NCBI GenBank assembly: GCA_022567475.1 | Contig: JADFGZ010000006.1 | Coordinates: forward strand, 1-32,534 | From: Acidobacteriota bacterium | GTDB lineage: Bacteria > Acidobacteriota > Terriglobia > 2-12-FULL-54-10 | Length of the DNA: 32,534 bases | Reading direction: 5' to 3' | Shown here: one piece after another, positions 1,942 through 7,010 of the stretch | How positions within the stretch are numbered: the first letter of the stretch is position 1 | How the letters are laid out: the number at the start of each line of letters is the position of its first letter | Notes under the pieces: model-generated | Told to the model about the DNA's origin: nothing | What the model saw: only the letters and a program-made list of their open reading frames with translations | Databases searched by the model: none | Made by a program: the position numbers and the translations under genes

Positions 1942-2679
1942 CTACTGCTGGATAGCCTCGGCGTAGGCAAGAACGGCGCGCGGATAATCCCGGCTGGAGC
2001 CGTAGTATCTTCCCAGCGCTTTCGCGTGGCCTTCATGCCAGCCGTGTTTCACCAGGAAATTGGCGGCGCTGAAAATGGCGTCGTGGATGTCGAAAGGGTT
2101 CACGAGGCTGTCCCCGTTCCCGTCATAACCGAAATTCTCAACCGACTGAGGAAGAAACTGCGCCGGGCCCAGCGCCCCGCCATAAGAGCCCTGGATTTCG
2201 AAGCAGTCGCTGTTGATGTTCCGGCAATAAGCGGCCAGCGACGCCAAATTATCGCCCGCCCATTTCCACCGTTTTTCCTCTTCGCGCCGCATCAGGGAAG
2301 TGTAGAAGATGTTAAAGGTGGTATAGCTTCCGGTGTTCTTGCCGAAGTTGCTCTCCAGGCCCAGTAATGCGGCGATCACTTCTTTGGGAACGCCGAATTT
2401 CTCCTCCGCTGCCAGCAGCGGGTCGTGATGCTGGAGGAGAAAGTCCTTTCCTCGTTTCACCGACGCCGGCGAGACCAGACGGGCGATGATTTTGTCCCAG
2501 TCGATTTTCCGGGGCTGCACGATTCGCGTCGGGTAGAGTTTCAGGCGGGGGTCCTGGAAGAACGCCTCGGCCTCCTGGCGCGAAAAGCCGTTACTGACGA
2601 GCTGCGACAGCACGTAGTCCATGCGTTCACTGGACTGGGGAGCCAGCGCAAGAAATACGGCAAAGACCGCGGGAAGCAT
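1942..2679 (-). CDS. MltB-type lytic murein transglycosylase
   Basis: 245-residue periplasmic enzyme that would cleave the MurNAc-GlcNAc bond of peptidoglycan to give 1,6-anhydro ends. The slt-like catalytic motif LLGLESNFGKNTG supplies the catalytic Glu (about residue 109), and the downstream GALGPAQFLP segment, a DGDG-like loop (YDGNGD) and the final HGW region match the MltB/RlpA-associated transglycosylase_2 family. I chose the ATG at 2679 rather than the longer frame to 2793: it is preceded by AAGGAA at good spacing and begins directly with a short hydrophobic signal-like stretch (MLPAVFAVFLALAPQS). There is no lipobox Cys, so it is probably soluble periplasmic rather than a lipoprotein. 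It lies 164 bases downstream of the glycosyltransferase operon on the same strand and may be read through from it. A peptidoglycan-opening role for the neighbouring secretion genes is possible but only inferred. Confidence 0.9.
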   Translation of the reverse strand: MLPAVFAVFLALAPQSSERMDYVLSQLVSNGFSRQEAEAFFQDPRLKLYPTRIVQPRKIDWDKIIARLVSPASVKRGKDFLLQHHDPLLAAEEKFGVPKEVIAALLGLESNFGKNTGSYTTFNIFYTSLMRREEEKRWKWAGDNLASLAAYCRNINSDCFEIQGSYGGALGPAQFLPQSVENFGYDGNGDSLVNPFDIHDAIFSAANFLVKHGWHEGHAKALGRYYGSSRDYPRAVLAYAEAIQQ

Positions 2680-2843
2680 CAGGTGAGTTCCTTTTTGGGA
2701 TATCCGCTCGGTTTGTATTGTAACGGCAATGATAAAAAAGGGAAGGGCTTTCCGTCTGAAAATATCAGATCGGCGGGTTACTACTTTGCTCACGTTGCTC
2801 GAATGGCAGCGGGCGTTTCGGCGCTTTCTACCCGGACTCGGCG

Positions 2844-4289
2844 TTAGCTTCCGGACGTCGGTTTGGTAACGCCTTGTTTCGGCTCAGACTGCCCCTGAAA
2901 GCCGACGCGCTCGAGTTGCTTCCAGCTCACGTCTCCCCGCAGGTACTGCCACGTGCCCTGGAGGCGCCAGAGCATGTGCAGTTGCCGGTACGGGAAATGT
3001 TCGAAGAAGCAGAAAAGAATCATGCGAGCCACGTCGCGCCAGTCGTTGTATCGCCGGAAGGTGATTTCCTCCTGCAGGACAGAGCCGATCGAGATCAGAG
3101 TGGCGAATGCGTAGCCGAAAATCAGGAATTGGATGAAAAATTCCCAGCGCAGAACTCCCAGCAGGGCGGCAAGAAAAATCGTCGTGTACCCGACCACTTC
3201 AATGACCGGAGCCAGCAGCTCGAACAGCCAGTGATACGGGATCGCCAGCAAGCCCAGTCGCCCGTAGCGCGGGTTGAAAATCATGTCGCGATTTTTCCAG
3301 AGCACGTCGAACATCCCGACCTGCCACCGGGCCCGCTGATGGGCGAGAGACTTCAGGGTAGACGGCACTTCGGTCCAGCACACCGGGTCCGGGATAAAGC
3401 CGATATGGTAGTGCTGTTTTTTCTCGCGCAAATAACGGTGCAGCCGGACGATCAGGTCCAAGTCCTCTCCGATAGCGGAAGACCTGTATCCGCCGATTGC
3501 CTTCACCAGATCGCGGCGGAATATCCCGAAGGCTCCAGAGATGAGCAGCAGCATGTTGAAGTGCGCCCATCCCTCCCGGCCGATCAGAAACGCCCGGAGG
3601 TACTCAATCACCTGAATGATTTCCAGCCACCGCTTCGGCAGCCGCACCTCCCGCAAGATTCCACCCTCGACGCGCGAGCCATTGACTGCGCGCACGATTC
3701 CCCCGACGGCGACTACGTTCTTGGGGTCGCGCAAAATGGGCACCATCATGCGCAGCAGCGCGTCTTGCTCCAAAACGGCGTCCGCGTCCAGAATGCAGAG
3801 ATAGGGACTCGATGCGGCGTTGATTCCCGCATTGACCGCATCGGCTTTGTTGCCGCCCGCTTCCTTGTCCAGCACCAGTAACTGCGGGTAATTCTGGCTC
3901 ATGTAGACCGCGCGAACCGGCTTCGTCTGAATCTCCGGGACGTAGAGTGCCTCGGTGCGAAGCAGTTGGAAGTGGTCCATGAGTTTCTCAAGCGTCCGGT
4001 CCGTTGAGCCGTCGTTGATCACGATGACTTCCAGCTCCGAATAATCCAGGCGCAGCAGCGAGCCTACCGAGTCCACAATCATCATTTCTTCATTGTGCGC
4101 CGGCACAAGCAGAGAAATCGGCGGGGCGAACGGAGAAGCCTTCAGGTGTTCCAAGCGGGTGGTGGCCAGCAGGCGCTGGTGCCGTATGTTGACGAAAATT
4201 GCAACGACCAGCAGAAGTAAATACACCATGTTCGAGAGGAGGTAGTAGAAGAACAAGGTGTAGTTGGAGATATTCAGAAACTCGTACAT
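2844..4289 (-). CDS. Processive family 2 glycosyltransferase (BcsA/PgaC/YaiP-like)
   Basis: 481-residue inner-membrane synthase. One N-terminal membrane segment (about 9-33) is followed by a cytoplasmic GT-A domain with the D,D,D,QxxRW signature of processive beta-glycan synthases: NDGSTD (Asp93), DAD at 168-170, GED at 274-276 as the catalytic-base region, and QRARW at 318-322. Several membrane segments follow (about 346-405 and 420-436) and would form the translocation channel. There is no PilZ domain, unlike bacterial cellulose synthase, so direct c-di-GMP activation through the same chain is not evident. Its ATG shares one base with the stop of the HEAT-repeat gene (TGATG), so translation is coupled. 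Polymer identity cannot be read from sequence; a beta-linked hexose or N-acetylhexosamine polymer is the family expectation. Confidence 0.9.
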   Translation of the reverse strand: MYEFLNISNYTLFFYYLLSNMVYLLLLVVAIFVNIRHQRLLATTRLEHLKASPFAPPISLLVPAHNEEMMIVDSVGSLLRLDYSELEVIVINDGSTDRTLEKLMDHFQLLRTEALYVPEIQTKPVRAVYMSQNYPQLLVLDKEAGGNKADAVNAGINAASSPYLCILDADAVLEQDALLRMMVPILRDPKNVVAVGGIVRAVNGSRVEGGILREVRLPKRWLEIIQVIEYLRAFLIGREGWAHFNMLLLISGAFGIFRRDLVKAIGGYRSSAIGEDLDLIVRLHRYLREKKQHYHIGFIPDPVCWTEVPSTLKSLAHQRARWQVGMFDVLWKNRDMIFNPRYGRLGLLAIPYHWLFELLAPVIEVVGYTTIFLAALLGVLRWEFFIQFLIFGYAFATLISIGSVLQEEITFRRYNDWRDVARMILFCFFEHFPYRQLHMLWRLQGTWQYLRGDVSWKQLERVGFQGQSEPKQGVTKPTSGS

Positions 4290-5662
4290 CAGGCGTGTAC
4301 CGTGTCGTACTCCGGTAAAGGCGACTCACTGCGCAGTTGGTGAACCAGCCATCTGATGACGCGTTGTTGGCGCGGGGCCTTTGCCGCCGTGTTGAGGGTT
4401 TCCAGTTGTGGCAGCAGTCGCGTTTCGCCCGAGCGTGCCAACAGCCGTGCCATCGCCACGCGCACATGTCCGTTGGCGTGGTGCGCCAGGGCATCCAGCA
4501 ACAGGCGGTGCGTGCCGGCTTGCAGCGCTGTCAGGAGCACCGATTCTGCCGTGCTGCGCTGCTTGGGGTCCGCCAGCGCATCCAGCAGCCGCAGGATGCA
4601 GCCGGATCGCTCCAGTTCTGAAACCAGCGCTTGCATCGCGTAGCGGTCGCCTCGCTGCTGTACCAGCCCGAGGATCTCTTGTACGTATGACTCCAACCGG
4701 GCGAGCGCGGCCGCCGAACGCAGCCGGACATACCGGTTGGAGTCGCACAGAGTTTCGATCAAAACCGGGATGGTGCGCACATCGCGCAACTCGCCCAAAG
4801 CCACCACTGCCCGCAGCCGCACGAACCATTCCTGATCCGTAGCCAGGTTGGCCAAAACCATCAGCGCTTGCTGGGGCCTGGCCTGGCCCAGCGCCCTCGC
4901 CGCCGAAGCCCGCACCTCTGCCAACGGGTCGGAGGCCAGCATCTGGAGGTCGTCTCCCAGTTCAGGCGTAGCCACCTCTGCCAGCACGCGCGCCAGCATC
5001 GGACGGAATGCATCCTCTGCCTTAGGCACATAAGACAGTAACACCGAAGGGCGGCGACGGCAGCAAGAAAACAGCGCGTTCTGCAGGACCGCAGTGGGTG
5101 CATGCAGCGAACCTCGGGTGATGCGGTCGAGAATGGGAACAGCCGCTTGGGACACGCCGGTTTGTCCCAGCGCTTGGATTGCGGCCACGCGCGTTTCCGC
5201 GCCAGGGTCGTCGAGCGCTTCCGTCAATGCGGGGATCACTTCCGGAGTCCTCATGCGGCCGAGCGCCACCATGGCCTGTCGGCGCTTCCAGCCGCGCAAA
5301 TGGCGGGATTCGTAGATCCGCCGGTCCAGCAGGCCGCTGGTCCGCAGAAACCGCCGCAGCCGTTTGGCCCGCGCACGGGGAGCGACTTCCAACTGGTCGA
5401 GCAGGATCGTCTCGACGATGTCGCAATCCAGTTCATTAAACCGCCAGTGCTCAATGGGGACTCGGCCATCGAGCAGGGCATCCCATTGTTTGCGAATGGC
5501 GATGGTATGTTCTTCTCGCGTTCGGATTTGGCGGCGGCGATAAGCGCGCCGCACCAGGATGTAAGCGAACAGAACACCGATGCTCGCCAGCGATGCGAAG
5601 ATGGCGTTCACCAGAAATCCCGAAGGTCCGAGTTGTTCTATCCAACTAAAAGCGGAACCCAT
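4289..5662 (-). CDS. Membrane-anchored HEAT-repeat protein
   Basis: 457 residues. A single hydrophobic segment (about 15-37) is followed by an Arg-rich stretch (RRAYRRRQIR), so by the positive-inside rule the large remainder should be cytoplasmic. From about residue 125 onward it is built of alpha-helical HEAT/PBS-lyase-type repeats with recurring patterns such as ALGRMRTPEVIPALTEAL, ALGQTGVSQAAVPIL and ALGELRDVRTIPVLIETL. Such repeats usually make a protein-binding scaffold, not an active site. The gene overlaps the end of the YaiO-like gene by 17 bases and its stop overlaps the start of the glycosyltransferase by one base, so the three products are made together. The inference is that it couples synthase and secretion pore or recruits a regulator; no catalytic function is claimed. 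Confidence 0.85.
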   Translation of the reverse strand: MGSAFSWIEQLGPSGFLVNAIFASLASIGVLFAYILVRRAYRRRQIRTREEHTIAIRKQWDALLDGRVPIEHWRFNELDCDIVETILLDQLEVAPRARAKRLRRFLRTSGLLDRRIYESRHLRGWKRRQAMVALGRMRTPEVIPALTEALDDPGAETRVAAIQALGQTGVSQAAVPILDRITRGSLHAPTAVLQNALFSCCRRRPSVLLSYVPKAEDAFRPMLARVLAEVATPELGDDLQMLASDPLAEVRASAARALGQARPQQALMVLANLATDQEWFVRLRAVVALGELRDVRTIPVLIETLCDSNRYVRLRSAAALARLESYVQEILGLVQQRGDRYAMQALVSELERSGCILRLLDALADPKQRSTAESVLLTALQAGTHRLLLDALAHHANGHVRVAMARLLARSGETRLLPQLETLNTAAKAPRQQRVIRWLVHQLRSESPLPEYDTVHA

Positions 5663-6890
5663 AACTGAACCCTATGCTGGTTTGACTGCGGTCTTGCGAG
5701 CGGTCCTGATACAGCGTGTAGAAGGTGACGTCCTGCAAAGGCGTAATCTGGTAGCGAGCGCCTCCACCGAAAGTACGCGCCGAGAAGCGGCCAATCTGGT
5801 CCGCGAGCGCGAAGTTTTCCGTGCCCGCTCCGTAAAAGGCGTGAGCGGTGAGCCGCTGATGTACGGGGAAGCTCAGGCGCATTGAGCCGGAAGGTCGCCA
5901 TTCGGCTGCGGTGGCGGAGAAGCGGCTGCGTGCGGCCGTAACCTGCAATGACACGATCCAGTCGCTCGGCAAGTAGAAGGACACGCGGGGCGTAAGCGCC
6001 AGCACGCGGGCGTCACTGAACCACAACCACTGCTGCCGGTAGGACGTCTCAACCCCGCGCAGCAGCCCCCGGCTGGCTACTTGGAATCCATGGCCGTACT
6101 CGAAAAAGCTTTCGCCCTTGGGAGTGATTCCATTGTGGCGGCCGGCGCCGCCGCCGACGGTTAAGGTGTCGTTCGGACTCAGCCGGTAACTGCCGCTGGC
6201 GAGGAACCGCAAGGCGTCCTGCCCGAAGCGGTGCTGAAAATTCCCTGTAAAACTGGTCGTCCACCGAGAACTGAACTGTGAGCGCAGGCTGAGTGTGGCG
6301 GCCTGGGCGTCTTCGGCAAAATTGAACCGGTCAAAGTCAGTTCCAAAACGAAATTCGTGGCGGGGTTCTTCTTCCAGCGAAACCAGCCCGGCCCGCGCCT
6401 GGGCGTTCCCAGGATCGTGCCGCAGAGCCTCGCGGAATGATGCGCTCGCTTCTTTCCTGCGTCCCAGAGACCGGAGATTACGGCCTCGGCGGATATGAAC
6501 GTCCGGACGCTGTGGCTCGTACTGACGGGCGCGATCCAGCAGGATCAAGGCTTCGTCAAAGCGTTGCTGCCAGGACAGCAGGTCGGCCAACCCCAGCAGC
6601 ATGTCTACATCGTTGGGAACGGCGGCCAGTACTAGACGGTACTCGTCTTCCGCCTCTGACCAGCGGTTTGACCAAGCCAGCAACCTCGCGCGCCACCCGC
6701 GTGCCTCCAGGTCCTGATGAACCTCTGCAAGCCGGCTTTCGGCGATGGCGAGGGCGGCATTATTATCTTTGTTATCAATTAGTTCGCGAATTTGTGCCTG
6801 CCAGTCCCGTTGCAACTGCTGTGCGGCAACCGGCAACACGCAAAGCAACCCCAGGGTGGCCAGCATCGTTAGCGAGGGGAGATTTTTCAT
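5646..6890 (-). CDS. YaiO-family TPR/outer-membrane beta-barrel protein
   Basis: 414 residues. A signal peptide (about 1-23, ending in PVAAQQ) is followed by tetratricopeptide-like helices (about 25-150, for example LLGLADLLSWQQRFDEALIL and ALRHDPGNAQARAGLVSL) and then an amphipathic beta-strand region from about 175 to the end. The chain ends in Phe (SYGFRF), the usual C-terminal signal for BAM-dependent insertion into the outer membrane. In domain plan it parallels PgaA/BcsC, in which periplasmic TPRs feed a polysaccharide pore, though the barrel is short as in YaiO. ATG at 6890 is supported by AAGG about 8 bases upstream. It is the first gene of a tightly overlapping operon with the HEAT-repeat and synthase genes, and a candidate promoter lies 60-90 bases upstream. 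The proposed role is export of the polymer made by the synthase. Confidence 0.85.
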   Translation of the reverse strand: MKNLPSLTMLATLGLLCVLPVAAQQLQRDWQAQIRELIDNKDNNAALAIAESRLAEVHQDLEARGWRARLLAWSNRWSEAEDEYRLVLAAVPNDVDMLLGLADLLSWQQRFDEALILLDRARQYEPQRPDVHIRRGRNLRSLGRRKEASASFREALRHDPGNAQARAGLVSLEEEPRHEFRFGTDFDRFNFAEDAQAATLSLRSQFSSRWTTSFTGNFQHRFGQDALRFLASGSYRLSPNDTLTVGGGAGRHNGITPKGESFFEYGHGFQVASRGLLRGVETSYRQQWLWFSDARVLALTPRVSFYLPSDWIVSLQVTAARSRFSATAAEWRPSGSMRLSFPVHQRLTAHAFYGAGTENFALADQIGRFSARTFGGGARYQITPLQDVTFYTLYQDRSQDRSQTSIGFSYGFRF

Positions 6891-6991: not shown

Positions 6992-7010
6992 GTCCCGATT
7001 TTATCGGGAC
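6992..7010. promoter_or_regulatory. Perfect 8-bp dyad upstream of the exopolysaccharide promoter
   Basis: GTCCCGAT and ATCGGGAC are exact inverted repeats separated by TTT. The dyad lies 10 bases upstream of the -35 box of the minus-strand promoter, a usual place for an activator or repressor site. It could also be the stem of a short hairpin, but neither strand has a good T-run after it, so an operator is the better guess. Confidence 0.4.

What the first reader, a model, noticed from the sequence alone, without database searches (positions are those of the whole stretch)
2844..6890. Overlapping YaiO barrel, HEAT-repeat and BcsA-like synthase operon
Three genes overlap end to end (17 bases and 1 base), giving a tightly coupled set: outer-membrane TPR/barrel, inner-membrane anchored cytoplasmic HEAT scaffold, processive synthase without PilZ. 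In cellulose and PNAG systems the pore and synthase are joined by other proteins; a HEAT-repeat scaffold in that place is not something I know as described. It may be a distinct exopolysaccharide secretion type, possibly with the adjacent lytic transglycosylase clearing peptidoglycan.
Basis: partly seen in the sequence, partly recalled or inferred. Interest (0 to 1): 0.7.

Follow-up and report, generated by a model that had tools for sequence, protein, structure and literature searches.

The report
HEAT-scaffolded polysaccharide synthase operon
The three overlapping genes encode a sugar-polymer synthase, a membrane-anchored HEAT-repeat partner and an outer-membrane exit barrel; the synthase-HEAT pair recurs across many bacterial phyla, usually beside a phosphorylation switch, and I found no earlier description of it.

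Summary
In detail: on the minus strand a YaiO-type TPR/barrel gene, a HEAT-repeat gene and a processive GT2 synthase gene overlap by 17 and 1 bases. HEAT-synthase adjacency is extremely conserved: HEAT lies directly upstream of (or is fused to) this synthase in 77 of 78 testable named loci and 107 of 108 testable loci from five phylum samples. In four Bacillota genomes the two are one protein whose topology puts the HEAT repeats in the cytoplasm. The pair is equally conserved in Gram-positive phyla without an outer membrane or YaiO, so HEAT is a partner of the synthase and not a bridge to the pore. Outside the window's own lineage the gene before HEAT is usually a phosphorylatable receiver (REC) domain, often near a histidine kinase, Hpt or GGDEF protein. 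I propose a control module, REC then HEAT then synthase, standing where PilZ or MshEN stands in cellulose or NfrB systems; YaiO and polymer-modifying enzymes are added by lineage. The adjacent lytic transglycosylase is not conserved. Function, polymer and REC binding are inferred. Surveys and papers I could search do not describe the module.

The parts
5646..6890 (-). YaiO-family outer-membrane protein: signal peptide, TPRs (about residues 63-165), C-terminal barrel ending in F; putative polymer exit pore
   Evidence: TIGR04390 36.6 bits, cut-off 32; signal-like hydrophobic segment 4-22
4289..5662 (-). HEAT-repeat protein with one N-terminal transmembrane helix (N-out, HEAT solenoid in cytoplasm); synthase partner
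   Evidence: AlphaFold2 pLDDT 95.9, pTM 0.86, all-helical solenoid
5558..5614 (-). predicted transmembrane segment of the HEAT protein (residues 17-35), followed by a basic stretch (RRAYRRRQIR)
   Evidence: 69 of 71 homologues have such a segment, 67 of the 69 with more K/R on the C-terminal side
2844..4289 (-). processive membrane GT2 synthase, no PilZ domain
   Evidence: relative of hyaluronan, cellulose and chitin synthases by sequence and fold
3324..3338 (-). QxxRW motif (QRARW, residues 318-322) of processive GT2 enzymes
   Evidence: alignment
5646..5662 (-). 17-base overlap of the yaiO and HEAT genes, conserved in Terriglobia
4289..4289 (-). 1-base overlap of HEAT stop and GT start
1942..2793 (-). 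MltB-type lytic transglycosylase; 50 bases downstream, possibly cotranscribed but NOT a conserved part of the module
   Evidence: no homologue near the pair in other loci

Best explanation
The operon encodes a synthase-dependent exopolysaccharide machine. The GT2 protein polymerises a sugar nucleotide in the cytoplasm and threads the chain through the inner membrane. The HEAT protein, anchored by one N-terminal helix with its solenoid in the cytoplasm, sits on the synthase's cytoplasmic face as an obligate partner that assembles or gates it. In most phyla a phosphorylatable receiver protein encoded just upstream probably docks on the HEAT solenoid, so that a phosphorelay switches polymer synthesis on or off after translation, in the place where PilZ (BcsA) or MshEN (NfrB) receives c-di-GMP. 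In the window's Terriglobia lineage the local receiver gene is absent, and the YaiO TPR-barrel gene is translationally coupled upstream as the outer-membrane exit. Shown by sequence: gene order, conservation, fusion, topology prediction, catalytic motifs, and conserved receiver phosphorylation residues in relatives. Inferred: physical complex, gating, REC docking, polymer secretion.
For: HEAT lies directly upstream of or fused to GT in 77/78 testable named loci, including 14/14 Actinomycetota and 11/11 Bacillota, and in 28/28 Acidobacteriota, 22/23 Bacillota, 23/23 Actinomycetota, 25/25 Bacteroidota and 9/9 Pseudomonadota sample loci. In G347, G349, G351 and G353 the profile finds exactly one HEAT match genome-wide; for G347, G351 and G353 its coordinates are those of the gene next to the GT. 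Single-chain HEAT-GT fusions in four Bacillota genomes mostly carry an extra transmembrane segment between the halves, as required if both halves are cytoplasmic. The fusion model folds with pTM 0.77. GT and HEAT tree distances correlate, r 0.73, permutation maximum 0.13, 144 loci. 35 of 37 short genes sampled near the HEAT start are Response_reg, with D52 in 36/37, T/S82 in 35/37 and K104 in 35/37 rows; others are multi-domain Hpt-REC-GGDEF-REC or kinase proteins. Precedent: phosphorylated EpsW, a single-domain response regulator, stimulates an EPS-initiating transferase after translation (PMC12802240).
Against: No structure or experiment shows HEAT-GT or HEAT-REC contact; no REC-HEAT fusion was found. 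The window lineage has no REC beside the operon (no REC hit within the fetched flanks of 13 of the 16 loci L046-L061; hits in the other three are on the opposite strand), so REC control cannot be claimed for the window itself. REC was not detected beside HEAT in the 9 Pseudomonadota sample loci, though flanks were short. The tree correlation is not corrected for the species tree. The fusion model was made from mostly unpaired rows and no PAE was available.
Confidence: 0.66

Rival explanations
1. HEAT is a trans-envelope scaffold joining the synthase to the YaiO pore.
For: In Terriglobia yaiO and HEAT overlap by a conserved 17 bases, which implies coupled translation.
Against: HEAT-GT is just as conserved in monoderm phyla without YaiO; the solenoid is predicted cytoplasmic and so cannot span the periplasm; YaiO position varies.
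Confidence: 0.06
2. HEAT is a purely structural subunit (stability, assembly or dimerisation of the synthase) with no signalling role; the REC gene nearby acts on something else.
For: HEAT solenoids are generic scaffolds (closest folds alphaRep and PP2A-A); HEAT is kept where REC is absent, as in Terriglobia.
Against: REC directly precedes HEAT in 13/14 Actinomycetota, 8/11 Bacillota and 9/12 Bacteroidota-group named loci, with intact phosphorylation residues and kinases or Hpt-REC proteins next to it.
Confidence: 0.25
3. The synthase makes a cell-wall or membrane glycan rather than a secreted exopolysaccharide, and YaiO is an accessory protein rather than an exit pore.
For: No product is known, and in monoderm loci no YaiO pore accompanies the pair.
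Against: The GT is closest in fold to hyaluronan, cellulose and chitin synthases, which export their own polymer; TPR plus barrel is the PgaA/BcsC layout; polymer-modifying deacetylase and sulfatase-superfamily domains occur in related operons.
Confidence: 0.15

Closest known systems
E. coli NfrB/NfrA (c-di-GMP-controlled GT with an outer-membrane partner; PMC8669469)
   Same: Membrane GT2 exopolysaccharide synthase plus an outer-membrane protein, with a cytoplasmic regulatory module on the synthase
   Different: Control domain there is a fused N-terminal MshEN c-di-GMP receptor; here a separate (occasionally fused) TM-anchored HEAT solenoid and, in relatives, a REC protein
PNAG (Pga/Ica) and cellulose (Bcs) synthase-dependent systems (PMC7112194)
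   Same: Processive GT2 with D,D,ED,QxxRW; TPR plus barrel outer-membrane partner in diderms; deacetylase or sulfatase-superfamily modifiers in some lineages
   Different: No PilZ domain in the synthase and no BcsB, PgaB or PgaD gene beside it; far below the PgaC and CelA curated cut-offs; HEAT partner instead; the 2020 survey text does not mention HEAT or YaiO
E. coli yaiO-yaiP-yaiS region
   Same: YaiO barrel near a GT2 (YaiP) and a deacetylase (YaiS)
   Different: No HEAT gene there; YaiP aligns at 29% over the catalytic core only
Myxococcus xanthus EpsW-EpsZ (single-domain response regulator activating an EPS-initiating transferase; PMC12802240)
   Same: A stand-alone receiver controls polysaccharide synthesis after translation
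   Different: Target is a phosphoglycosyl transferase of a Wzx/Wzy pathway; no HEAT protein involved

Membership tests
Synthase-dependent exopolysaccharide system (general kind) | Inner-membrane processive GT2 with D, DxD, ED and QxxRW | tested here: met
Synthase-dependent exopolysaccharide system (general kind) | Outer-membrane TPR plus beta-barrel exit protein in diderms | tested here: met
   (TIGR04390 above cut-off); pore function itself not testable here
Synthase-dependent exopolysaccharide system (general kind) | Cytoplasmic regulatory or co-polymerase subunit tied to the synthase | tested here: inconclusive
   HEAT occupies that genomic position and is fused in places, but its function is not shown
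Cellulose (BcsA) system | BcsA curated model and PilZ domain | tested here: not met
   TIGR03030 46.8 bits against cut-off 699.1; no PilZ hit
PNAG (PgaC/IcaA) system | PgaC/IcaA curated model; PgaA porin model | tested here: not met
   TIGR03937 144.6 against 422.3; TIGR03939 27.7 against 366.65
NfrAB system | MshEN c-di-GMP domain on the synthase | tested here: not met
   no such domain in the GT
YaiO outer-membrane family | YaiO barrel domain model | tested here: met
   TIGR04390 36.6 bits, cut-off 32; Pfam YaiO marginally below its cut-off
REC-HEAT-GT module (proposed here) | HEAT with N-terminal TM immediately upstream of this GT | tested here: met
REC-HEAT-GT module (proposed here) | Adjacent receiver-domain gene | tested here: not met
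   none beside the window operon; none beside the operon in the Terriglobia loci examined

The most novel reading that the evidence does not exclude
A cross-phylum class of polysaccharide synthase, undescribed in the literature I could search, whose activity is gated by a membrane-anchored HEAT solenoid that receives a phosphorylated receiver domain, giving phosphorelay rather than c-di-GMP control of a processive synthase in both monoderm and diderm bacteria, with the pore and polymer-modifying enzymes added by lineage.
Probability: 0.5. Interest if true: 0.78.

Novelty: new variant of a known kind. Interest (0 to 1): 0.62.

Why it matters
Known synthase-dependent polysaccharide machines are mostly thought of as c-di-GMP-controlled and were surveyed as five polymer types. 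The synthase of this HEAT-coupled kind was found in about 9% of sampled Bacillota, 17% of Actinomycetota, 21% of Acidobacteriota, 25% of Bacteroidota and 4% of Pseudomonadota genomes (the Acidobacteriota search used a single sequence and a looser cut-off), yet HEAT appears in neither of the two survey texts checked. It gives a directly testable hypothesis for how many environmental bacteria, including Gram-positives, switch a processive synthase by phosphorylation, and it points to a likely undescribed matrix polymer system.

Tried and rejected
HEAT as envelope-spanning scaffold: rejected on monoderm loci and topology. Lytic transglycosylase as part of the machine: no conservation. Riboswitch or other Rfam RNA in the window: none. 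Zetaproteobacterial sfz stalk cluster as the same system: its synthase carries an EpsE-like (T2SS) N-terminal domain and its partner is BcsB-like, no HEAT. E. coli yaiO-yaiP as direct homologue: no HEAT, weak similarity. The actinobacterial in-frame fusion L169 was not used as topology evidence: only one hydrophobic segment separates its halves, so it may be a frameshift artefact. Literature searches combining HEAT or PBS lyase with exopolysaccharide, YaiO, CheY-like, response regulator or cellulose synthase found no paper on this gene pair among the hits shown; subscription papers and preprints were not searchable.

Full report
WHAT IS THERE. The three ORFs and their overlaps are exactly as described. 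Family scans identify TPR plus YaiO barrel, HEAT repeats, and a GT2 without PilZ. A fourth minus-strand gene 50 bases downstream is an MltB-type lytic transglycosylase. Upstream, divergently transcribed, is what reads as an acyl carrier protein gene followed by a fabF-like gene (named from the sequence, not scanned), so the operon appears to start at yaiO.

CONSERVATION OF THE TRIO IN THE PHYLUM. Searching 60 relatives with the HEAT protein gave 13 genomes with a match including the window's own. Every match at E 1e-15 or better has a GT homologue beside it. In a 297-genome Acidobacteriota sample the GT has 63 positive genomes; HEAT is adjacent in 28 of 28 testable loci among the 29 inspected.

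THE PAIR GOES FAR BEYOND ACIDOBACTERIOTA. A scan of named genomes with a GT alignment returned 80 loci from Acidobacteriota, Bacteroidota and Balneolota, Ignavibacteria, Cloacimonadota, Actinomycetota (Solirubrobacter, Kineosporia, Sanguibacter), Bacillota (Clostridium, Priestia, Halolactibacillus), Pseudomonadota, Bdellovibrio, Nitrospirota, Chloroflexi, Aquificaceae, Elusimicrobia and one MAG labelled archaeal. HEAT is directly upstream in 77 of the 78 loci with enough upstream sequence; the exception is L062. Phylum samples of anonymous genomes give 22/23 (Bacillota, two of them fused, the exception being a broken GT with a HEAT gene just upstream), 23/23 (Actinomycetota), 25/25 (Bacteroidota) and 9/9 (Pseudomonadota). 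The sample centres are genomes also in the named set, so the two tallies overlap slightly, and I inspected only loci the tool fetched. In G347 (Solirubrobacter), G351 (Clostridium folliculivorans) and G353 (Kineosporia) the profile finds one HEAT gene in the whole genome, and it is the one beside the GT.

YAIO IS NOT THE CONSTANT. YaiO is found near the pair in most diderm named loci (24/28 Acidobacteriota, 9/12 Bacteroidota group, 8/8 of the Pseudomonadota and relatives group), in 0/14 Actinomycetota and in 1/11 Bacillota (a weak hit, L124). Its position varies: upstream overlapping HEAT in Terriglobia, between REC and HEAT in Alphaproteobacteria, downstream of GT elsewhere, or convergent in some Bacteroidota. 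HEAT therefore belongs with the synthase, not with the pore.

TOPOLOGY AND FUSION. 69 of 71 HEAT proteins have an N-terminal hydrophobic segment and 67 of those have more basic residues after it than before it, placing the repeats in the cytoplasm; the two without it may be wrongly started genes. Four Bacillota genomes encode HEAT and GT as one chain (L154; L186, L187, L188). Three of the four show two hydrophobic segments between HEAT and the catalytic domain; in L186 the simple hydropathy scan called one. Since the GT catalytic domain must be cytoplasmic, two crossings place HEAT there too. AlphaFold2 of the window HEAT protein is a confident solenoid (pLDDT 95.9, pTM 0.86); the fusion L188 reaches pTM 0.77, suggestive but without PAE not proof of docking. 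The fold matches only generic HEAT/ARM scaffolds; the GT half matches hyaluronan, cellulose and chitin synthases.

THE MISSING PARTNER: A RECEIVER DOMAIN. In most non-Terriglobia loci the gene before HEAT is about 125 aa long. Of 37 such short genes sampled, 35 match Response_reg, with phospho-acceptor D52 in 36/37 rows, T/S82 in 35/37 and K104 in 35/37. In other loci it is the last domain of a larger protein such as Hpt-REC-GGDEF-REC (L070, L100, L117), and CHASE3-HAMP-PAS histidine kinases or hybrid kinase-REC-REC-Hpt proteins lie further upstream. REC adjacency in named loci: Actinomycetota 13/14, Bacillota 8/11, Bacteroidota group 9/12, Acidobacteriota 8/28. The window's subgroup lacks it.

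LINEAGE ADD-ONS. Polysaccharide deacetylases sit in the operon in L073, L103 and L112. In some Bacteroidota the GT is C-terminally fused to, or followed by, a PF00884 sulfatase-superfamily domain, the superfamily that also contains phosphoethanolamine and phosphoglycerol transferases (background knowledge). These suggest different decorations of a shared backbone type; the sugar is unknown.

MECHANISM. Shown: gene linkage, fusion, predicted topology, catalytic motifs, conserved receiver residues. Inferred: HEAT-GT complex, gating, REC docking on HEAT. The EpsW-EpsZ work (PMC12802240) is a precedent for a single-domain receiver activating an EPS enzyme; NfrB (PMC8669469) is a precedent for a cytoplasmic regulatory module on a GT paired with an outer-membrane protein.

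NOVELTY. The 2020 survey of synthase-dependent systems covers five polymer types and its main text contains neither HEAT nor YaiO; a 2021 review of c-di-GMP control does not contain HEAT. I class it as a new variant of synthase-dependent polysaccharide systems.

Noticed in passing
window 6992-7010: Perfect 8-bp inverted repeat (GTCCCGAT-TTT-ATCGGGAC) about 100 bases upstream of the yaiO start, in the gap before the divergent acpP-fabF genes; could be an operator or terminator. No Rfam match in the window.
   Followed up: no
L228-L233 (Bacteroidota): The GT2 synthase is part of a 1134-1260 aa protein; in the three scanned (L228, L229, L232) the C-terminal part is a PF00884 sulfatase-superfamily domain. 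L234 carries the same kind of domain with TPRs as a separate gene between GT and YaiO.
   Followed up: partly
L234 1737-12446: Two HEAT-GT modules in tandem in one Bacteroidota genome, the first with a REC gene, each followed by a YaiO-like gene.
   Followed up: no
L123: A MAG labelled Candidatus Thermoplasmatota archaeon carries the HEAT-GT pair; this may be contamination or transfer.
   Followed up: no
L169 1453-4260: Actinobacterial in-frame HEAT-GT reading frame with an Arg/Gly-rich linker and only one hydrophobic segment between the halves; a frameshift in the linker is suspected.
   Followed up: partly
L235 4560-7355: HEAT protein more than twice the usual length (931 aa) next to the GT, with a further weak HEAT match near residue 800.
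   Followed up: no
window 1942-2793: MltB-type lytic transglycosylase 50 bases downstream of the GT; seen in the window only, so it may be cotranscribed by chance.
   Followed up: yes
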